A DNA stretch of 64,000 nt from Streptomyces beigongshangae (GTDB lineage Bacteria > Actinomycetota > Actinomycetes > Streptomycetales > Streptomycetaceae), in NCBI RefSeq assembly GCF_019710745.1, contig NZ_JAHKJW010000014.1, positions 1-64,000 on the forward strand. The letters are read 5' to 3'. A program made the translations under genes and the position numbers. Below, piece after piece: positions 3,316 through 13,640 of the stretch (positions within the stretch are counted from its first letter, which is position 1; each line of letters starts with the position of its first letter). The notes under the pieces are model-generated. The model saw only the letters and a list, made by a program, of their open reading frames with translations, had not been told where the DNA came from and ran no database searches.

Positions 3316-3349
3316 GAGGGTCACCCCCGCACGTGCGGGGGTGACCCTC
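3316..3349 (-). terminator. Perfect 17-bp palindrome, likely terminator
   Basis: Two perfectly complementary 17-base arms (GAGGGTCACCCCCGCAC and its complement) meet with no spacer, five bases beyond the stop of the secreted-protein gene ending at 3355. Position and strength fit a factor-independent terminator without a U tract, as is common in Streptomyces. Confidence 0.75.
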
Positions 3350-5468: not shown

Positions 5469-5579
5469 CTATTTGTTTCGGCCTCTGAGTGTGACGAAGA
5501 TTCCGATGGAAAGGCCGATCACCAGCATCGCGATAGTTACTGGCGGATTGTCAGTCACGGCCGCGCTCAACAAATTCAT
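5469..5579 (-). CDS. Tiny single-span membrane protein (36 aa), last member of the Rhs-linked array
   Basis: The ATG at 5579 follows GGAAGG. The product is a short polar start (MNLLSAAVTDNPP), one hydrophobic helix about residues 13-29 and a basic tail (LRGRNK). This predicts one span with the tail inside. It is the most distal of ten such genes found 3' of the Rhs gene and its remnants. It is about 80 bases from the next tiny gene (5663-5782) on the same strand. No sequence family is recognised; the architecture is the shared feature. It could be an immunity or holin-like protein. Confidence 0.6.
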   Translation of the reverse strand: MNLLSAAVTDNPPVTIAMLVIGLSIGIFVTLRGRNK

Positions 5580-5662
5580 TCGATCCTTCCTCAGGCGTCT
5601 TCAGCTGTCTCCCTGGATTGCTGATGTCATCTGTCCGCAGAATGACGCAACTTCCTGAATCG

Positions 5663-5782
5663 TCAACGCCTATTTTTGGTAGCGACGTAGAACACCAATG
5701 CGATGCACCCTAGAAACACGGAAAAGGCAAGCCACTCGTAGCCTTTGGGGGCGAATCCGGTCAGCGCAGCCAGTTCGTTCAC
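5663..5782 (-). CDS. Tiny single-span membrane protein (39 aa) directly 3' of an Rhs remnant
   Basis: GTG at 5782 is preceded by GGAGGG at the ideal distance. The product VNELAALTGFAPKGYEW then has one strongly hydrophobic helix (about residues 17-34) and the basic end TKNRR. The reading frame starts just 3' of an Rhs fragment ending ...GTLNSM near 5809, the position an immunity gene would have in an Rhs locus. The open frame extends upstream through the remnant, but the ribosome site fixes the start at 5782. Function unknown. Confidence 0.62.
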   Translation of the reverse strand: MNELAALTGFAPKGYEWLAFSVFLGCIALVFYVATKNRR

Positions 5783-5783
5783 C

Positions 5784-5866
5784 GCTGGTCCCTCCGCTTC
5801 TTCAGCGCATGGAATTGAGTGTGCCCCCGGTTTCGCGAACAAATCCCGTGTGCACACCGGCAGTGT
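5784..5866 (-). pseudogene. Rhs remnant A
   Basis: Bases 5809-5864 match, with only a few differences, 10825-10880 inside the intact Rhs gene (encoding AGVDTGFVREPGGTLNSM). In translation the remnant reads AGVHTGFVRETGGTLNSMR followed by a stop. Everything else of the Rhs protein is missing. It is a scar of a displaced Rhs 3' module. Confidence 0.8.
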
Positions 5867-5875
5867 CATCGGCTT

Positions 5876-6346
5876 TCAGTCGCCGTACGGCGCGCAGAGG
5901 CTGCGCACCTTCTCATGGGCGGACTTCGCCTCCGCGCCCTTCACGTTGTAGGTCACCACGTGTTGCCGCACGTTCTGCAGCGCCTTGTCCAGGTCCTCGT
6001 AGCGGTCGTCCAGCGCGGCCGCGGACTGGGCCAGTGCGGCGGCGGCCTCCACCCGTTCGTAGCGGGACTGAGAAGTGTTCTTGAAGTCGCTGAAGACGGT
6101 GCTCAGTTCCGGAACCCGGCGGAACGCCTGACAGGCACCCACCGCGTCGGCGCGGGCGTCGTCCGGATCGGTGCTGGACGCCGGGCTGCCCCCATCGGCC
6201 CAGAGCAACCAGCCGAGACCAACGCCTGCGCCACAGGCCACGACCGCAGCGATAAGCGGCACTCTCCATCGGGAGGCAGGACGGCTGTCTGCCGCGGAGG
6301 CCGGCGGATGGGCGGGAGGAGGCGGCGCGGGGGCGGGGACGGTCAT
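5876..6346 (-). CDS. Membrane-anchored protein of unknown function, inside the Rhs array
   Basis: A 156-residue protein with a Pro/Ala-rich cytoplasmic start (residues 1-27), one membrane helix about residues 29-48 (VPLIAAVVACGAGVGLGWLL) and an outside domain of about 105 residues rich in helix formers, with Cys at about 71 and near the end. The outer part resembles the small helical domains of many Streptomyces membrane proteins without a known role. GGAGAG precedes the ATG at 6346. Its stop codon adjoins Rhs remnant A, so it lies within the array; it could be cargo, an immunity protein, or unrelated. Confidence 0.65.
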   Translation of the reverse strand: MTVPAPAPPPPAHPPASAADSRPASRWRVPLIAAVVACGAGVGLGWLLWADGGSPASSTDPDDARADAVGACQAFRRVPELSTVFSDFKNTSQSRYERVEAAAALAQSAAALDDRYEDLDKALQNVRQHVVTYNVKGAEAKSAHEKVRSLCAPYGD

Positions 6347-6608
6347 CGACTCGGCTCTCTCCGACGGGGCGGGTGGTACCGCTGCGGGTGAACGGCAGCA
6401 AGGTATCGGCCGCCGCGCCCCTCTGTCCGACGTTCGCTCGAACAGTCGTACGTCGGAGTGTTTCCATGCCTACTGACCACGCCGGATGTTGCCGAACACG
6501 GCGTGCTCGATCGGCCGCTGCCGCCGGCGGCAGCGCAGAAGACCGCCAAACCTCGTGCTGATGACCAAGGTGACCAACCGGAGCGTCCCACCGACGCCCT
6601 TCGCACGG

Positions 6609-6749
6609 TCAGGCTCTCTTCCTGTTCCTCCTGGAAGCAGCGACAGCGGCGTACACCAGTCCGAGCACAAGTAGTGCTATGACGACCCCAATGGGCAGTC
6701 CGCCGAGTCCCTTGTAGGCCAGATCGCTCCAGTCGTCGCTTTCGTGCAT
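6609..6749 (-). CDS. Tiny single-span membrane protein (46 aa) in the Rhs array
   Basis: The ATG at 6749 has GAAGGGA about ten bases upstream. The product has an acidic start (MHESDDWSDLAYKG), one helix about residues 18-38 and a very basic tail (SRRNRKRA). The acidic outside and basic inside ends give the same predicted topology as its neighbours. It follows the tiny gene 6809-6931 on the same strand by 59 bases. No family recognised. Confidence 0.6.
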   Translation of the reverse strand: MHESDDWSDLAYKGLGGLPIGVVIALLVLGLVYAAVAASRRNRKRA

Positions 6750-6808
6750 CAGATTACTTTCCCTTCTGTGTGTTGATACAGATTTCCGCTTTAGTCAGTG
6801 CCTGCAAG

Positions 6809-6931
6809 CTACTTCTTCTCCTTCTTGTACCGCCAGTATCTCAGTGCGAATCCAACAACCAAGACGATTCCGCCCAAAATCCACGTCGCCGCGGGATTAC
6901 CCTGGAAGCCGATGCCGATAGCTTCAGTCAT
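6809..6931 (-). CDS. Tiny single-span membrane protein (40 aa) directly 3' of Rhs remnant B
   Basis: GAGGAGGAGTG lies just before the ATG at 6931, among the best ribosome sites in the window. The product MTEAIGIGFQGNPAATW has one helix about residues 16-31 and the basic tail RYWRYKKEKK. The Rhs-derived frame upstream (ending ...NSMNRDRK...) closes over this start, so the gene sits where an immunity gene follows an Rhs tip. Function unknown. Confidence 0.65.
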   Translation of the reverse strand: MTEAIGIGFQGNPAATWILGGIVLVVGFALRYWRYKKEKK

Positions 6932-6944
6932 CACTCCTCCTCAG

Positions 6945-7065
6945 GGTCGGATATGGGAGAGGCCGGCTTTTTCGGTCACGGTTCATGGAGTTCAGCGTGC
7001 CCTCAGGTTCGCGAACGAATCCCGTGTCCACACCGGCAGGTGTCCCCGGAACCAGGCCGGGCGCG
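6945..7065 (-). pseudogene. Rhs remnant B
   Basis: Bases 6985-7040 match 10825-10880 of the intact Rhs gene. The translation reads AGVDTGFVREPEGTLNSMNRDRK and then passes directly into sequence like that found 3' of the YD core (near 10660), so the core-coding part between has been deleted. No start or complete domain remains. Confidence 0.8.
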
Positions 7066-7316
7066 GCCGCCGTGGTGGACGGCAACCTATGGGCAGTCAT
7101 TCCGTGCGGAGTGGCCCGTCCGAGCCGGCGCCAGGGGATCCCGGACGGGTCATATGCATCGAAAGCGCCTCCGGTGTTGGACGATCGATAAACATTGCTG
7201 GACTCCACGTTATGGAAAATACGCTCCGCGACGGCAACGATGGGTGCCTGGCAGCGAGAGCCGCCAGGCGTGAGGAGTCCACTCATGCCGGATCGACGCG
7301 AGGAGCAAAGAGACGT

Positions 7317-8327
7317 ATGCGATACCGATTTCTCGGAAGGTCGGGGCTGCGGGTGTCGGAACTGTCGCTGGGGACAGGTAATTTCGGCATGCGCTGGGGG
7401 CACGGGGCGCATGCGCCCGAGGCCAAGGCGATGTACGACACCTACAGAGAAGCGGGAGGAAACTTCATCGATACCGCTTCCAACTATCAGGCGGGGGAGG
7501 CCGAGGAGTACCTCTCGGATATTATCTCCTCGGATCGCGAGGACATAGTTCTGTCGACGAAGTACACCATGGGGACTTCAGCGAGCAGTGGCCTCCAGCT
7601 GACCGGGAACAGCCGAAAGGCGATGGTCCAGTCGCTGGAGCAGAGCTTGCGTCGACTGGGCACCGACCGGGTGGACGTGTTCTGGGCCCATGTGGCCGAC
7701 GATTCCACGCCCATCGAAGAAATACTGCGGACCTTCGACGATCTGACGCGCGCCGGCAAGATTCTGTATGCCGGTCTCTCCAATTTTCCCGCCTGGCGTG
7801 TGGCGACGGGAGTCACCATGGCGCAGCAGCAGGGCTGGGCCCCTCTCGTGGCAATCCAGACCGAGTACAGTCTCGTCCAGCGTGACGCCGACCGGGAGCT
7901 GGTGCCGATGGCAGAAGCCTCTGGCCTGGGCGTCCTCGGGTTTTCGCCTCTCGGCGGTGGTCTTCTGACGGGCAAGTACCGGCGGGGCGCAACGGGTCGC
8001 GCCCAGAGCTCGATCAGCCAGTTCCTCCACAGGGAGGACGACCCCGTCAAGGCGAAAATCCTGGATGCTGTCGAGAGCGTCGCCCGGGACCTCGATACGA
8101 CTCCGGAGCGAGTGGCCCTCAAGTGGTTGATGTCGAAGGGGGTGCTCCCCATCCTCGGACCGAGGAACGTGGATCAGCTCACGTCAAACCTCGCGGCCGG
8201 CGATCTGGACATCCCAGTGCGTCAGCTCGAATGGCTGGACGAGGTGAGCGCGCCACGGCTGGGATACCCCCACGGAATGTGGTCGGAGCACGAACAGGTG
8301 GACAGGAAGCGGTTCTCTCAACCGTAG
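7317..8327 (+). CDS. Aldo/keto reductase
   Basis: A 336-residue NADPH-dependent (beta/alpha)8 reductase. The catalytic tetrad is visible: Asp52, Tyr57 (FIDTASNYQ), Lys82 (LSTKYT) and His125 (WAHVAD). The NADPH-binding end has GFSPLGGGLLTGKY and ILGPRN. The ATG at 7317 has GAGGAG about ten bases upstream; the longer open frame upstream lacks family similarity. It is the only plus-strand gene within the Rhs array and separates two groups of tiny membrane genes, so it probably arrived by insertion. It likely reduces an aldehyde or ketone; the substrate is unknown. Confidence 0.9.
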   Translation: MRYRFLGRSGLRVSELSLGTGNFGMRWGHGAHAPEAKAMYDTYREAGGNFIDTASNYQAGEAEEYLSDIISSDREDIVLSTKYTMGTSASSGLQLTGNSRKAMVQSLEQSLRRLGTDRVDVFWAHVADDSTPIEEILRTFDDLTRAGKILYAGLSNFPAWRVATGVTMAQQQGWAPLVAIQTEYSLVQRDADRELVPMAEASGLGVLGFSPLGGGLLTGKYRRGATGRAQSSISQFLHREDDPVKAKILDAVESVARDLDTTPERVALKWLMSKGVLPILGPRNVDQLTSNLAAGDLDIPVRQLEWLDEVSAPRLGYPHGMWSEHEQVDRKRFSQP

Positions 8328-8532
8328 GGATCGTCCGGCGAATCTGATCGAGAGGACGACATGAGGGCCTCATTCGAGGACAGGGCCATCGCGCAGGGCC
8401 GTCCGGGCAGCCGGTGGTTCGCGCGGCTCTGATCCATGAGGCATCCCGGTGGTGCAGCGCCTGGACTGTTCCATCGGGAGACCTCGGCTCGTCACCAGGA
8501 GCCACCGACGCTGTCCCTCTCCGTTCAGCGCT

Positions 8533-8673
8533 CTACTTTACGCGGTTGCGCAGCAGGCCGACCGCGAAGAAGATCGCGCCCGCCATGACCACCACACCGA
8601 AGATGATCCCAGGCCGCGGAGGACCGTCGGGCCCTCCTCCGGGTGCCGCCAGTTCCGCTCCGAATATTTCCAT
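8533..8673 (-). CDS. Tiny single-span membrane protein (46 aa) in the Rhs array
   Basis: The ATG at 8673 has AGAAGGG upstream. The product starts MEIFGAELAAPGGGP, has one helix about residues 22-41 (GIIFGVVVMAGAIFFAVGLL) and ends RNRVK. It shares its layout, not its sequence, with the neighbouring tiny genes. It is the last of four consecutive tiny genes (9343 to 8533) on the minus strand. The 205 bases between it and the reductase hold nothing clear. Confidence 0.6.
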   Translation of the reverse strand: MEIFGAELAAPGGGPDGPPRPGIIFGVVVMAGAIFFAVGLLRNRVK

Positions 8674-8722
8674 GGCCCTTCTGTTACCAAGTTTTCTTGA
8701 TAGTTGTTTCAGGATTTCAATC

Positions 8723-8869
8723 TCAACGGCCGCGCTTACGGGTGATCCTTCCGTAGATAATCATTCCTATAAGGGCGGCAATGGCTATGGCAAGGATTAC
8801 CAGCCCTGCGGTGCCCTCGGGCATCGCGCGTCCCTCATTGGCTATCAGTTGGGTACTCGTCGATTCCAC
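8723..8869 (-). CDS. Tiny single-span membrane protein (48 aa) in the Rhs array
   Basis: GTG at 8869 is preceded by GAGGGA; an internal ATG at 8824 is a possible shorter start. The product has a polar N-terminus with an acidic patch, one helix about residues 20-39 (TAGLVILAIAIAALIGMIIY) and a basic tail (GRITRKRGR). It belongs to the chain of four tiny genes with spacings of about 50-130 bases. Unknown function. Confidence 0.6.
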   Translation of the reverse strand: MESTSTQLIANEGRAMPEGTAGLVILAIAIAALIGMIIYGRITRKRGR

Positions 8870-8991
8870 TTGTCTCCCTCTCTCGCGCTTGACGTCCTGG
8901 ACGGGTGTCGTGGAAGGATGGGGAAACTGAAATTACGCAGAATTCGCCCTCTCCGTTCCGCGACCCTGGCGAGATCCCAAGTACCGGGAAG

Positions 8992-9129
8992 TCAGCTACC
9001 GCCGCCGTTCCGTTTGCGCATCAGAGTTCCGGTCACCAGTGCGATGCCTGCGACAGCAATGATGATGAGCAGCCAGGTCGGCATCCCAGGCGTCGAGGCT
9101 CCGCGAGCAAATGTCTCGTACGACTCCAT
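8992..9129 (-). CDS. Tiny single-span membrane protein (45 aa) in the Rhs array
   Basis: AAGAGGAA precedes the ATG at 9129. The product MESYETFARGASTPG is followed by one helix about residues 17-35 (TWLLIIIAVAGIALVTGTL) and the tail MRKRNGGGS. The predicted topology is outside N-terminus and inside C-terminus, as for the other members. Unknown function. Confidence 0.6.
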   Translation of the reverse strand: MESYETFARGASTPGMPTWLLIIIAVAGIALVTGTLMRKRNGGGS

Positions 9130-9259
9130 GGGGTTCCTCTTTTTGCGAGTTATGGTTGGTTGGCGCACACGGGCGCCTCGGGAGCTTTCCGCGGAGCGAA
9201 CAGCCGGTTGCCTACTCCTCTCTGTTGGGTGAGCTCTTCCGCTGAGCTCTCCTGTGGAT

Positions 9260-9343
9260 TTACCGCCGCCTTCCCATGAGAACGACGCTGAGTCCACCGA
9301 TCACCGCCCCCACGACAAGGCCGACAATCCAAATGGGATCCAT
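9260..9343 (-). CDS. Minimal membrane peptide (27 aa) following Rhs remnant C
   Basis: The ATG at 9343 with GGAG upstream encodes a peptide that is almost only a membrane helix: MDPIW, a helix of about 18 residues (IVGLVVGAVIGGLSVVLM) and GRRR. It follows the decayed tip of Rhs remnant C. At 27 residues it is the shortest candidate and is supported by the ribosome site, the position and the shared layout with its neighbours. Confidence 0.5.
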   Translation of the reverse strand: MDPIWIVGLVVGAVIGGLSVVLMGRRR

Positions 9344-9399
9344 TTTCGAACTCCGTTCGACATGGTGCGATGTCAGCCGAAGCTTTCTGATCGGGTGTA

Positions 9400-9783
9400 G
9401 TCGACAGCACTGTCACCAGACCACCCGCGCCACCTGTGACGGCACCGATTCCGCATCCGGCCACGGCACCGGACCCGCCCATATGGATCCGAGAGCGCCC
9501 GCCGCGCAACCTCCGGCTCCACCGCCTACGCCTACGCCAAGGGCTTTGCTGGCGAACCTGTCCCAGTCCCACAACCCGTTGGGGGCGGGGCGGCCGACGG
9601 GATCGACTGCGGCGTACAGGGCGTACAGGTAGGGGTTCTTCTCCAGGCCCGACGGGGCCTGCTGGGTGAAGCGGTACGGCTGGGAGAGGCCGGCTTTTCG
9701 GTGGTGGTGGAGCGGGTGACGCCGCAAGGGCTGTAGGCGTACGTGTTCACCTTCGTGCCGGACTCGTCGGCGAATGCGACGAC
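9400..9783 (-). pseudogene. Rhs remnant C: end of the YD core plus a Gly-rich tip, frameshifted
   Basis: The translation contains GTKVNTYAYSPCGVTRSTTTEK, then after a frameshift KAGLSQPYRF, EKNPYLYA and DPVGRPAPNGL, matching the end of the Rhs core. About 25 residues (the HLGARYYDP segment) are deleted relative to the intact gene. The tip that follows is Gly/Ala-rich (VGVGGGAGGCAAGALGSIW..., then GAVAGCGIGAVTGGAGG) and also crosses a frame change near 9480. It is a displaced Rhs tip of the same hydrophobic, glycine-zipper type as the intact one. Confidence 0.8.
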
Positions 9784-9787
9784 GGCT

Positions 9788-9979
9788 TCACCCAGCGTTT
9801 CGCCTCCCTCTCGAATAAATGAAAATGCCTACAATCAAAAAAACTACTGGCGCGAACATGATGGGGATGAACCGCGCCCCGCTGATCAGCATTGCCATGA
9901 CCAACGCCGCCATCACCAAGGTGAAAAATAGCACCACCGCGCCGAGAATTTTTACAATCTGCGCAGACTGGCGATCCAT
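9788..9979 (-). CDS. Small two-span membrane protein (63 aa) in the Rhs array
   Basis: AGGAAG precedes the ATG at 9979. The product MDRQSAQIVK is followed by two hydrophobic segments (about residues 11-33 and 38-55) and a basic end SRGRRNAG. It is the largest of the tiny proteins and the only one with two predicted spans. It lies between the gene directly 3' of the intact Rhs gene and Rhs remnant C. Possible immunity protein; no family recognised. Confidence 0.68.
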   Translation of the reverse strand: MDRQSAQIVKILGAVVLFFTLVMAALVMAMLISGARFIPIMFAPVVFLIVGIFIYSRGRRNAG

Positions 9980-10016
9980 ATTGCTTCCTATCGGATTGGG
10001 TTGATCGACCCGTATT

Positions 10017-10157
10017 CTATTTTTTCATCCGATTCCCAATGAACTTTCCAATGAGCCCCAGGATGACAACTGCAACAATAGATCCAATAAAGATTGGAAT
10101 TTCCATTCCTTCTGGAATCCAGGATCCTTTCCCGACGTTCTCGGCCATTTTGATCAT
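10017..10157 (-). CDS. Tiny membrane protein (46 aa) directly 3' of the intact Rhs gene; candidate cognate immunity
   Basis: GAGGAG lies just before the ATG at 10157. The product MIKMAENVGKGSWIPEGME is followed by one helix about residues 20-39 (IPIFIGSIVAVVILGLIGKF) and a basic tail (IGNRMKK). It starts 64 bases after the stop of the 1139-residue Rhs protein, the classic place for the immunity gene of an Rhs toxin. The hydrophobic Rhs tip would suit a membrane-embedded immunity partner; this pairing is an inference from position. Confidence 0.65.
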   Translation of the reverse strand: MIKMAENVGKGSWIPEGMEIPIFIGSIVAVVILGLIGKFIGNRMKK

Positions 10158-10220: not shown

Positions 10221-13200
10221 CTAGGACCATGCCTTCGTTGTCTGGTCCTCGGCAAAATTGCCGGCTGCATCAGCTCCGACAGCACATGCCGGGGATGCCG
10301 CGGCACCCCCTACAGGGCCAAACGTCATGGTTGCTCCGGCGATGCACGCCGTCCCAACGGCAGCGCCGAACGCGGCACCAAATCCGATTGAGGCAGCCTG
10401 TCCCCACTCACCGTCACCGACGGCCTGGCCGAACTCAACAGCCGTCTTTATGTCCCCCAGAGGGGTGAGGGCCTCGGCGGCGTCCATGAGAGAAAACAGG
10501 CCGGTGGGGTCGATGCGGTTGACCGGGTCGCCTTCGGCGTAGAGGTAGGGGTTCTTCTCCTGGCCGGAGGGGTCGGGCTGGGTGAAGCAGCCGATGTTGG
10601 GGTCGTAGTAGCGGGCGCCGAGGTGGTACATGCCGGTGGGGTCCTGGTGGCCGCCGGCGAAGCGGTACGGCTGGGAGACTCCGGCCTTCTCGGTGGTGGT
10701 GGAGCGGGTGACGCCGCGGGGGCTGTAGGCGTACGTGTTCACCTTCGCGCCGGACTCGTCGGTGAGCGCGACGACGGAGCCGAGGGCGTCGGTGAGGTAG
10801 TAGTACGCCTTGCCGTCACGGGTCATGGAATTCAGCGTGCCCCCGGGCTCGCGAACAAATCCCGTGTCCACACCGGCAGTTGTCTCGGCCGCCAGGCCGA
10901 TGGGACCGGGGTGGAAGTAGGTGTCGCCCAGGCGGTGGCGCTCGCTGGAGTCGGTGGAGCCGTACTCACCGGGGTAGGTCTTGCCGCCCACGGTGAGGGA
11001 GGTGAGCTGGGAGAAGTCCGACCACGTCTCGGCCGTGCGGGTCTCCTCCGGGGTGGAGGCGCCCGCGGTCTCGTTGCCGGCCTTGTCGTAGGACCAGTTC
11101 GCCGTGGAGCCGTTCTTGCTCGTCAGCTGCGAGGCGTCGTCGTAGGTGTAGGTGGTGCCGCGGGGGCAGCCGGGCTCCACGCCCTGGGAGGTGAGGTTCC
11201 CGGCGGCGTCGTAGCAGTACTGCCAGGACGCGTTGAGCGTGGTGCCCTTCTCCTCCTTGGCGTAGGAGAAGCGGCCCGCGGTGTCGTAGCTGTAGGTCGT
11301 CTTCATCCCCGAGACCGCGTCCGTGCTGGTGCGGATCTTCGATCCGTCCGCGGTCCTGCCGTTGGCGTCGGTGTAGGCGTACGTGTAGGCCAGGCTGACC
11401 AGGGTGCCCTTGGACGAAGTGGTCCTGATGGTCTCGGGGCGGCCGGACTTGTCGGGCTTGACCGTCTGCACGGTGCCGCCGGGGTAGGCGGTCTCGGTGC
11501 GCGCGTCGTTCTCGTTGTGCTTGTACGTCGTCAGACGGCCCTGGGGGTCCTTGAGGGACTTCAGGCGGTTGGCCTCGTCCCAGGTGTAGTCGACCGTGCC
11601 CTGGGGGTCGGTGTAGGTGTCGACGTTGCCGGCCGGGGTGTAGGTCAGGACGGTCTGGGAGCCGTCCTGGAGGGTGCGGACCGTCTCGCGGGAGAGCGGG
11701 TCGAAGTCGTACTCCATCGTGCCGATGTCGTCGGTACGGGTCTTCAGGTTCCCGTCACCGTCGTAGGAGTAGGTGACGGTCGTGTTGGTCGTGGAGACTT
11801 CCTTGACGCGGTCGCGGTGGTCGTAGGTATAGACGCTCTTGATGCCGCGGCCGTCGACGGCCGTCTCCGTGCGCCCCAGCGCGTCGTAGGTGTAGACGGT
11901 GGGGGTGGTGTTCAGCGGCGCGGGCGGGGTGACCTTCTTGAGGTTGCCCTTGGCGTCGTACTCGAACGACGTCACCTTGGAGCGCGCGTCCTTGGCCGTG
12001 CAGCGCTGGCCCTCGAAGCCGCCGCAGGTGGGGGTGGCCGGGTTGTAGGTGAAGGACCGCGTGCCGCCGCCCGTTCCGGTCACCGCCACCGACATGGTGT
12101 TGCCGGCCGTGTCGTACTTGTAGTCCGACTTCTCGCCGTCGGCCGTGGTCATGCTGCCGGGCAGGTCGGAACCGGCGATCGTCTGGTAGCCGGTGACCGA
12201 CGAGGAGGCGCCGGTGGGCAGCGTGGCGCCGGTGGGGTTGTTGCGCGCGTCCCACCCGTACTTGGTGACGTTGCCGCCCACACCGTTCACGCCCATGGCG
12301 TCGGTGGCCGTGTCGATGTTGTTGTTCGCGTCGTAGGTCCGCGGGCGGGAGTGTCCCAGCGCGTCGGTGACCTTGGAGACCCTGCCCTTGGCGTCGTGCT
12401 CGTACTTCGTGGCGTGGTTCTCGGGGTCGGTCGCCGTGGTGGTGCCCGCCGCGAACGGGTCGGTGGCGGTGTAGGAGTAGCGGTAGGTGGGGCCGGTGTG
12501 GCCGGAGCCGTTGAACTCGGTGGCGCGCAGCATGCTGGTGACGCGGTTGGCCGCGTCGTAGGTGAAGGCGGTGACCCGGCCCTCGGGTGTCGTGATCTTC
12601 GTCAGGCGCCGGGAGGAGTCGTAGTCGAAGACGGTGGTCTTGCCCTCGGTGTCGGTCGTCCTGGCGAGGTCGCCGGCGGGGTTGAGGTCGAAGACGGCGG
12701 TGCGGCCGGTGTGGTCCTTGGCCTGCCACTGCGAGGCGTCCGTCTTCAGCAGGTCGACGGAGCGGCCGGAGCGGGTCTCGGTGAGCTCGAAGCCCTTGTG
12801 CTCGGTGCCCTCGTCGTGCTGGTCGACGGTGATGACGCCCTTGTTCTTGTCCGTGACCTTCGTCAGTGTCCCGTGCTCGTCGTACGTGTCCTTCGACCCC
12901 GACTTGCGGTCGGTCAGGGTGAAGGTGCCGTCCGCGTTCGCCTTCAGGTCCTTGGAGTACCCGGTGGGCGTCTTGTACGTTCCGTCGGCGTTCTCGGTGA
13001 ACGTCCACGACGCGCCGGTGGAGTCGTAGTGCACGAACTCCGTGTCGCTGACCTGCGCGTAACGCTCGTACGTCTGCCACCAGCGCTGGGAGACCTTGCC
13101 CCAGGGGGCATCCAGCGAGTTGTAGGTACGGGCGAGCTGGAGCTTCTGCCCGACGCCCGCGACGTCGAAGTCGGTGCCGGCCAGCATCAGATTGCCGGTG

Positions 13201-13640
13201 GAGTAGTCGATCCGCGCCACCAGCGAGTCGGTGACACGGATGTCCGTGATCTGGTGCCAGGGGACGTCGCCCTGGCCCTCGGGCACATAGGACGCGGCAG
13301 CGGCCCGGGCGGTGTCGCCCGCCGCGCCGGAGCGCGCGCCCTTGCCGGTGGCCGAGGTCGCGCGCTCCTTCTGTGCCTTGCGCCAGGCATCCCGCTCCGG
13401 TGACAGGGGTGCCTCGGCCACCGGCTCGGCCGGCTTCGTCTCGCCGACCTTGACCGCCGGCACGGCGGCCTTGGGGTTGTCCTTGCCCCATGCGGAGGCC
13501 GGCTTGGGGTCCGCCGGATCGGCGGCCGGTGCCGCCAGGGCCGGTACGGCGCCCGCGGCCAGCGACAGCGCCGCCACGGTCGCCACGAGACCGTGTCTCG
13601 CACGGAAATGGGCATGTTTGTGCGCATGCGAATGCGGCAT
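10221..13640 (-). CDS. Rhs/YD-repeat secreted protein with a hydrophobic Gly-rich C-terminal tip
   Basis: A 1139-residue protein of the polymorphic-toxin type. Residues 1-36 form a Sec signal (MPHSHAHKHAHFRARHG, then a hydrophobic stretch ending ALAAPA). Residues about 130-200 match the conserved Rhs entry region (TDSLVARIDYSTGNL). Many YD repeats follow (YDANN, YDALGR, YDAAGN, YDGDGNLKTR), then the Rhs-associated core ending NPYLYAEGDPVNRIDPTGL near residue 1048. The remaining 91 residues are the variable tip: helical start, then GFGAAFGAAVGTACIAGATM and GPVGGAAASPACAVGA, a glycine-zipper pattern that suggests membrane insertion rather than a nuclease. The ATG at 13640 has GGGGGGAA upstream. 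It heads the array of remnants and tiny membrane genes. Confidence 0.9.
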   Translation of the reverse strand: MPHSHAHKHAHFRARHGLVATVAALSLAAGAVPALAAPAADPADPKPASAWGKDNPKAAVPAVKVGETKPAEPVAEAPLSPERDAWRKAQKERATSATGKGARSGAAGDTARAAAASYVPEGQGDVPWHQITDIRVTDSLVARIDYSTGNLMLAGTDFDVAGVGQKLQLARTYNSLDAPWGKVSQRWWQTYERYAQVSDTEFVHYDSTGASWTFTENADGTYKTPTGYSKDLKANADGTFTLTDRKSGSKDTYDEHGTLTKVTDKNKGVITVDQHDEGTEHKGFELTETRSGRSVDLLKTDASQWQAKDHTGRTAVFDLNPAGDLARTTDTEGKTTVFDYDSSRRLTKITTPEGRVTAFTYDAANRVTSMLRATEFNGSGHTGPTYRYSYTATDPFAAGTTTATDPENHATKYEHDAKGRVSKVTDALGHSRPRTYDANNNIDTATDAMGVNGVGGNVTKYGWDARNNPTGATLPTGASSSVTGYQTIAGSDLPGSMTTADGEKSDYKYDTAGNTMSVAVTGTGGGTRSFTYNPATPTCGGFEGQRCTAKDARSKVTSFEYDAKGNLKKVTPPAPLNTTPTVYTYDALGRTETAVDGRGIKSVYTYDHRDRVKEVSTTNTTVTYSYDGDGNLKTRTDDIGTMEYDFDPLSRETVRTLQDGSQTVLTYTPAGNVDTYTDPQGTVDYTWDEANRLKSLKDPQGRLTTYKHNENDARTETAYPGGTVQTVKPDKSGRPETIRTTSSKGTLVSLAYTYAYTDANGRTADGSKIRTSTDAVSGMKTTYSYDTAGRFSYAKEEKGTTLNASWQYCYDAAGNLTSQGVEPGCPRGTTYTYDDASQLTSKNGSTANWSYDKAGNETAGASTPEETRTAETWSDFSQLTSLTVGGKTYPGEYGSTDSSERHRLGDTYFHPGPIGLAAETTAGVDTGFVREPGGTLNSMTRDGKAYYYLTDALGSVVALTDESGAKVNTYAYSPRGVTRSTTTEKAGVSQPYRFAGGHQDPTGMYHLGARYYDPNIGCFTQPDPSGQEKNPYLYAEGDPVNRIDPTGLFSLMDAAEALTPLGDIKTAVEFGQAVGDGEWGQAASIGFGAAFGAAVGTACIAGATMTFGPVGGAAASPACAVGADAAGNFAEDQTTKAWS

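What the first reader, a model, noticed from the sequence alone, without database searches (positions are those of the whole stretch)
5469..10157. Array of ten tiny membrane proteins 3' of an Rhs gene and its remnants
Ten minus-strand genes of 27-63 codons (5469, 5663, 6609, 6809, 8533, 8723, 8992, 9260, 9788, 10017 as low ends) each have a ribosome site, a short polar or acidic start, one helix (two in one case) and a basic tail. Their sequences are not obviously related, so the common architecture is striking. They lie after an intact Rhs gene and after each of three Rhs scars. This looks like an archive of membrane-type immunity genes kept after their toxin tips were lost, or a family of membrane effectors. 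I know of no described array of this kind in Streptomyces.
Basis: partly seen in the sequence, partly recalled or inferred. Interest (0 to 1): 0.85.

Follow-up and report, generated by a model that had tools for sequence, protein, structure and literature searches.

The report
Archive of tiny toxin-immunity genes
Behind one seemingly working secreted toxin gene, this soil bacterium keeps ten very small membrane-protein genes that look like antidotes to toxins it once carried, most of whose toxin parts have since been lost.

Summary
In detail: ten minus-strand ORFs of 27-63 codons with SD-like sites, one helix (two in 9788) and basic tails lie 3' of an intact Rhs gene and three Rhs scars. A detector finds exactly these ten in the stretch; 300 Markov sequences gave 0 or 1. 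The immunity-archive reading is supported by comparison, not by experiment. Nine of the ten have relatives within 0.75 kb behind an Rhs tip elsewhere. Followers track the tip (r 0.46, 0 of 2000 permutations), hardly the Rhs core (r 0.10). Eight families tested evolve as coding DNA. The one relic tip left has two one-base deletions while its tiny gene is intact. Such a follower stands behind 46 of 77 intact Rhs genes and 1 of 347 other genes. Genome-wide, the four families searched are rare; of seven genomes with strong hits outside the query alignments, four have Rhs core or cognate tip beside the gene, three do not. Best reading: an orphan-immunity array left by repeated Rhs tip replacement, a known process, here with unusually small, mostly single-helix proteins. 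Side finding: one tip class is predicted to have the Rhodococcus Vap fold.

The parts
10221..13640 (-). Intact Rhs gene, 1139 aa; variable tip is the 3' end, 10224-10502
   Evidence: RHS repeats and Rhs-associated core above curated cut-offs; YD-shell fold; tip 43% identical to that of L106
10017..10157 (-). Tiny gene, one helix, directly behind the intact tip (likely present immunity gene)
   Evidence: Relative is first gene behind a similar tip in L106; motif GKGSWIP[ED]G shared with L098, L099
9788..9979 (-). Tiny gene, two helices, partner of 10017
   Evidence: 10017-9788 relatives lie 5 nt apart in L191; relative 744 nt behind the tip in L106 and in L197
9376..9819 (-). Scar 1: Rhs core pieces and a frameshifted tip relic
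   Evidence: Matches Rhs and the L134 tip with two one-base deletions
9260..9343 (-). Orphan tiny gene, 27 aa, partner of the scar 1 tip
   Evidence: 93% identical to the first gene behind the intact L134 tip; also L087; orphan in L018
8992..9129 (-). Orphan tiny gene, 45 aa
   Evidence: Weak relative (E 0.001, 38% over 37 aa) first behind the tip of L020/L091
8723..8869 (-). Orphan tiny gene, 48 aa
   Evidence: 73% identical relative 23 nt behind the L100 tip; same tip class before its relative in L192
8533..8673 (-). Orphan tiny gene, 46 aa, partner of a beta-class tip
   Evidence: Relative first behind the L104 tip; relic of that tip before its relative in L188
6966..7058 (-). Scar 2: 93 bp of Rhs core, no tip left
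6809..6931 (-). Orphan tiny gene, 40 aa
   Evidence: 54% identical relative 9 nt behind the L096 tip
6609..6749 (-). Orphan tiny gene, 46 aa
   Evidence: Relatives first behind related tips in L035, L108, L144
5808..5879 (-). Scar 3: 72 bp of Rhs core, no tip left
5663..5782 (-). Orphan tiny gene, 39 aa
   Evidence: 77% identical relative 266 nt behind the L128 tip, after a two-helix gene; also in L046
5469..5579 (-). Orphan tiny gene, 36 aa, tip unknown
   Evidence: 48% identical relative only in a relic array of L020

Best explanation
This is an orphan-immunity array left by repeated replacement of the toxic tip of one secreted Rhs protein. Each incoming cassette brought a short tip and its membrane immunity gene; recombination within the Rhs gene pushed the older tip-plus-immunity pair downstream, where tips decayed or were deleted and immunity genes were kept. 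The tips probably attack the cytoplasmic membrane; each tiny protein, N-terminus outside and basic tail inside, would block its cognate tip there, and the array would protect against relatives still using the older tips. Shown: genes, scars, tip-specific pairing, coding constraint, one dead tip beside an intact tiny gene. Inferred: toxicity, protection, topology, expression of the orphans, the order of events.
For: Ten ORFs against a null of 0-1. Followers behind 46 of 77 intact Rhs genes against 1 of 347 other genes. Tip-follower correlation 0.46, 0.45 with core similarity removed, 0 of 2000 permutations each; core-follower 0.10, 113 of 2000. Nine of ten window genes with relatives within 0.75 kb behind an Rhs tip. 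Relic tip with two one-base deletions beside an intact 93% identical gene. pS above pN in 22 of 23 comparisons, pooled 0.61 and 0.27. Same families are behind intact tips in some genomes and orphaned in others (9260: L134 and L087 against L018). 42 of 46 single-helix followers have the more positive flank at the C-terminus.
Against: No toxicity, protection or translation data. Nine of 77 intact Rhs genes show no such ORF even in a looser look, which had no control. The comparison loci were fetched with the Rhs core, so linkage to Rhs is built into them; outside the query alignments, 3 of 7 genomes with strong hits lack a carrier or tip beside the gene. An 8723 relative in L096 is broken, so retention is not universal. 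Constraint is weaker for 6609 (omega 0.26-0.73), and 8992 and 5469 were not tested.
Confidence: 0.82

Rival explanations
1. The tiny proteins are themselves membrane effectors or type I-like toxins, and the Rhs gene is only a neighbour.
For: Short helix with basic tail resembles small toxic membrane peptides (recalled); stand-alone copies occur.
Against: They co-vary with the tip and stay intact where the tip is dead; a toxin kept without its antidote is unlikely.
Confidence: 0.07
2. They are helpers of the Rhs protein (export, anchoring or release), not antidotes.
For: They follow the Rhs gene closely.
Against: A helper of the carrier should track the core; core-follower correlation is 0.10 (113 of 2000) and tip-follower 0.46. 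Helpers would not be expected as orphans. A helper specific for each tip is not excluded.
Confidence: 0.06
3. The array is a decaying graveyard: immunity genes once, now neutral remnants without function.
For: Scars and dead tip; a broken relative in L096.
Against: All ten frames intact with SD-like sites; coding constraint in the eight families tested, although those comparisons mix orphan and paired branches and so do not time the constraint to after tip loss.
Confidence: 0.2
4. Chance ORFs without biological meaning.
For: Short; no family above cut-off in Pfam (nine of the ten scanned) or, for six tiny proteins, NCBIfam.
Against: Markov null, conserved families, coding pattern.
Confidence: 0.01

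Closest known systems
Vibrio cholerae T6SS orphan immunity arrays by effector displacement (PMC5361080; abstract, part of the introduction and section list seen)
   Same: Arrays of orphan immunity genes 3' of an effector-immunity pair, matching immunity genes paired with effectors in other strains; new pairs displace old effectors and old immunity genes stay.
   Different: Carrier is a Rhs protein with a signal-peptide-like start in Streptomyces; the proteins are 27-63 aa membrane proteins; Rhs scars mark the replacements.
Polyimmunity loci (PMC3482391; passages and section 39 seen)
   Same: Tandem, same-orientation immunity genes of several families.
   Different: There, toxin genes or cassettes never intervene; here toxin remnants do and an intact toxin gene heads the array. 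The membrane immunity families in the passages seen have two helices (Imm17, Imm-CdiI).
Orphan Rhs/CdiA C-terminal toxin-immunity modules (PMC3150448; title and start of abstract in the listing)
   Same: Tip-and-immunity modules linked to Rhs genes, with orphans.
   Different: Here mostly the immunity half remains.
Tse5/Tsi5 and EsxX/ExiCD (PMC9637101, passages; PMC12744356, abstract and section 12)
   Same: Membrane-depolarising toxins (Tse5 an Rhs tip, EsxX with a glycine zipper) answered by membrane immunity proteins; ExiCD also occur as an orphan pair, as 10017-9788 relatives do in L191.
   Different: Tsi5 has two predicted helices and ExiCD are polytopic; most followers here have one. Depolarisation untested here.

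Membership tests
Rhs polymorphic toxin (10221-13640) | RHS/YD repeats and Rhs-associated core | tested here: met
   PF05593 160.5 bits against cut-off 22; TIGR03696 74 against 32.5
Rhs polymorphic toxin (10221-13640) | YD-shell fold | tested here: met
   AF2 model; Foldseek best matches are solved Rhs proteins, E 2e-43
Rhs polymorphic toxin (10221-13640) | Conserved core followed by a variable tip | tested here: met
   Core conserved in 29 aligned proteins, tips differ
Rhs polymorphic toxin (10221-13640) | Toxic tip | not testable with these tools
   Needs expression
Orphan immunity array by effector displacement (Vibrio type) | Orphan genes resemble immunity genes paired with effectors elsewhere | tested here: met
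   Nine of ten have relatives within 0.75 kb behind an Rhs tip
Orphan immunity array by effector displacement (Vibrio type) | Remnants of displaced effectors | tested here: met
   Three Rhs scars, one with a tip relic
Orphan immunity array by effector displacement (Vibrio type) | T6SS context | not tested
   No T6SS search was made; the Rhs protein starts with a signal-peptide-like segment (read by eye)
Orphan immunity array by effector displacement (Vibrio type) | Orphans protect | not testable with these tools
   Needs competition assay
Polyimmunity locus (Zhang et al. 2012) | Four or more tandem genes, same orientation | tested here: met
   Ten on the minus strand, if they are immunity genes
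Polyimmunity locus (Zhang et al. 2012) | Never interrupted by toxin genes or cassettes | tested here: not met
   Rhs scars and a tip relic intervene; so it is not filed here
Vap fold (beta-class tips, not in the window) | Eight-stranded barrel of the Vap type | tested here: inconclusive
   Model pLDDT 76; VapD Z 11.5, rmsd 2.4, 98 aligned, but Foldseek E 0.03
Vap fold (beta-class tips, not in the window) | Sequence similarity to Vap proteins | tested here: not met
   No Vap match for 11 of 11 tips in Pfam at E 1, nor by profile in PDB sequences at E 10

The most novel reading that the evidence does not exclude
Streptomyces carry a large arsenal of short membrane-attacking Rhs tips, answered by a superfamily of 27-50-residue single-helix immunity proteins that share a P-x-G motif outside the membrane, and bank old antidotes in arrays from which some travel on alone. 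One tip class has the Vap fold of Rhodococcus equi, which would link that virulence fold to weapons used between bacteria.
Probability: 0.2. Interest if true: 0.85.

Novelty: new variant of a known kind. Interest (0 to 1): 0.62.

Why it matters
If right, a single helix of 27-50 residues suffices for immunity, fewer helices than in the membrane immunity proteins of the papers seen, so the toxin-antidote contact inside a membrane could be dissected residue by residue. The array is also a readable record of toxins that a lineage has met, and for nine of ten entries a candidate tip can be named from relatives; that makes the open question whether orphan immunity genes are kept by selection testable gene by gene.

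Tried and rejected
Chance ORFs and a carrier helper were tested and found poor. No family above cut-off: Pfam for nine of the ten tiny proteins (9260 was not in that call), NCBIfam for six tiny proteins and three tips. Scars 2 and 3 keep overlapping pieces of Rhs; a DNA search of the own genome with scar 2 found itself, the intact Rhs, scar 3 and two short weak matches, so no wider repeat. Plasmid collection: no match by megablast. The Rhs model does not resolve the tip (pLDDT about 22). Profile comparison of 8533 with 8723 families was negative.

Correction made on checking: the genome-wide searches used alignments whose rows came from Rhs-derived loci, and four of five strong A1 hits and two of five strong A3 genomes are such rows. 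Independent genomes with E below 1e-6: A1 one of 391 (G203, a 10017-9788 pair without Rhs nearby), A2 three of 198 (G127 with a relic of the cognate tip; G123 none; G126 only a 21-residue Rhs match 3.2 kb off on the other strand), A3 three of 391 (G277 with cognate tip; G114 and G154 with Rhs core), A4 none of 198. So 4 of 7, not most. About 8-9 kb was examined on each side, except that the G127 contig ends 0.2 kb beyond.

Rows dropped: one of 23 (10017 against L191) was misframed to 2 codons (it is inside the pooled figure); four have infinite dS; one of 2 control hits among 348 was the window Rhs itself, hence 1 of 347. One search used 57 modules that have a follower, and left out pairs with tip similarity 0.85 or more. 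Of 43 loci, 40 were used (L053-L055 left out as distant). The 32 sequences were picked by hand (P-x-G in 15, shuffled mean 5.0, 0 of 2000 reach it), so that motif is only suggestive.

Papers: no such array in Streptomyces appeared in the listings (open-licence library, capped lists). One search lists 12 of 119 papers; none holds Vap and polymorphic-toxin terms together, and papers with more terms are listed first.
Full report
What is there. The window (G000:C46) is from a Streptomyces, judged by its relatives: the Rhs core is 95% identical to one in S. apricus. At 10221-13640 on the minus strand lies a 1139-aa Rhs protein with a signal-peptide-like start (read by eye), RHS repeats, an Rhs-associated core and a 94-aa Gly/Ala-rich tip. 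Behind it, over 4.7 kb on the same strand, lie ten ORFs of 27-63 codons: 10017 and 9788 behind the intact gene; 9260, 8992, 8723 and 8533 behind scar 1; 6809 and 6609 behind scar 2; 5663 and 5469 behind scar 3. A mechanical detector finds exactly these ten in the stretch, and 300 Markov sequences gave 0 or 1. The array also holds an aldo/keto reductase gene on the plus strand and a 156-aa ORF without a Pfam match.

The same arrangement elsewhere. The own genome has a second intact Rhs with another tip, followed 37 nt on by a 39-aa membrane ORF, and an Rhs fragment with a Gly-rich tip. From 40 of the 43 loci found with the core and 60 stretches that I picked from the hit list of 392 genus genomes, 128 distinct modules of core end plus tip came out; 78 have at least 600 aa open up to the core end. 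Of 77 with a 50-125 aa tip and enough sequence, 46 have a tiny membrane ORF starting within 150 nt, against 1 of 347 other genes in the same loci. Of the 31 without, 22 have a membrane ORF in a looser look that had no control, and nine have none. In the next 620 nt, 25 of 77 show two such ORFs, 20 of them one single-helix and one two-helix, as in the window pair 10017-9788. Relic modules with part of the core recur in many of the loci.

Pairing with tips. Across 57 modules, tip and first-follower similarity correlate at 0.46 and, with core similarity removed, at 0.45 (0 of 2000 permutations each); core and follower correlate at 0.10 (113 of 2000), tip and core at 0.15 (22 of 2000). Relatives of the window genes lie behind tips elsewhere: 10017 (L106), 9260 (L134, L087), 8992 (L020, weak), 8723 (L100), 8533 (L104), 6809 (L096) and 6609 (L035, L108, L144) as the first gene; 5663 (L128) 266 nt behind the tip after a two-helix gene; 9788 in L106, 744 nt behind the tip, 34% identical and without a detected SD. 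5469 has a relative only in a relic array of L020. These loci were fetched by their Rhs core, so they show which tip goes with which follower, not how often a follower occurs without Rhs.

Loss of tips, retention of followers. Scar 1 keeps a recognisable tip. Aligned with L134 and L087 it has two one-base deletions, while the 27-aa gene behind it is intact and 93% identical to that of L134. Scars 2 and 3 are 93 and 72 bp of Rhs that end about 35 and 26 nt before the start of the next tiny gene; no tip is detectable. The tiny frames evolve as coding DNA: 22 of 23 window-relative comparisons have pS above pN (the other was misframed), pooled 0.61 and 0.27; where dS is finite, omega is 0.04-0.41, and 0.26-0.73 for 6609 (eight of ten families). 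Those comparisons mix paired and orphan branches. Retention is not universal: an 8723 relative in L096 is frameshifted.

Genome-wide occurrence. Four families were searched in 199 or 392 genus genomes. Leaving out the own genome and the rows of the query alignments, strong hits lie in seven genomes: in four beside an Rhs core or a relic of the cognate tip (G127, G277, G114, G154), in three not (G123, G126 with only a 21-residue Rhs match 3.2 kb off, G203). In G203 a 10017-9788 pair, 5 nt apart, stands alone; in G123 an integrase-core transposase gene lies 1.6 kb off; in G127 an IS4/5 transposase piece lies just before the tip relic. All three genomes without neighbours have Rhs cores elsewhere. 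This fits antidotes that can move alone, but it also means that linkage to Rhs is not strict.

How it most likely works. Of 46 single-helix followers 42 have the more positive flank at the C-terminus, three the reverse, one equal; by the positive-inside rule (recalled) that means N-out, C-in. With hydrophobic Gly/Ala-rich tips this suggests tips that attack the cytoplasmic membrane from outside and antidotes that meet them in it, as Tsi5 and ExiCD do for Tse5 and EsxX. A second tip class (11 rows) is modelled as eight strands at pLDDT 76 and best matches Rhodococcus equi Vap barrels (Z 11.5 to 10.8, next 8.1), with weak Foldseek E-values and no sequence support. The window holds only the orphan partner of that class, 8533.

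Against the known. The process is that of the V. cholerae arrays and of orphan Rhs modules (listing). It is not a polyimmunity locus in the strict sense, as toxin remnants intervene. New are the carrier and genus, the very small, mostly single-helix proteins, the scars that mark replacements, and the tip classes. Hence: new variant of a known kind.

Noticed in passing
L029:10583-10876 and ten other tips (alignment A8): A four-cysteine Rhs tip class is predicted as an eight-stranded barrel that best matches Rhodococcus equi Vap proteins; no sequence match.
   Followed up: partly
window 6798-8327, plus strand: Aldo/keto reductase gene (Pfam PF00248) lying inside the array on the opposite strand.
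   Followed up: no
window 5876-6346, minus strand: 156-aa ORF with one hydrophobic segment inside the array, no Pfam match.
   Followed up: no
L011:3500-3813 (own genome, contig C133): Regular repeats at 61-nt spacing, CRISPR-like, about 2.5 kb from an Rhs fragment with a Gly-rich tip.
   Followed up: partly
window 3316-3349: Perfect inverted repeat, two 17-nt arms without spacer.
   Followed up: no
L191:9288-9613: Stand-alone 10017-9788 relatives 5 nt apart, no Rhs core within about 9 kb on either side.
   Followed up: partly
L188:7778-8596: Transposase piece, then a truncated beta-class tip, then an 8533 relative.
   Followed up: partly
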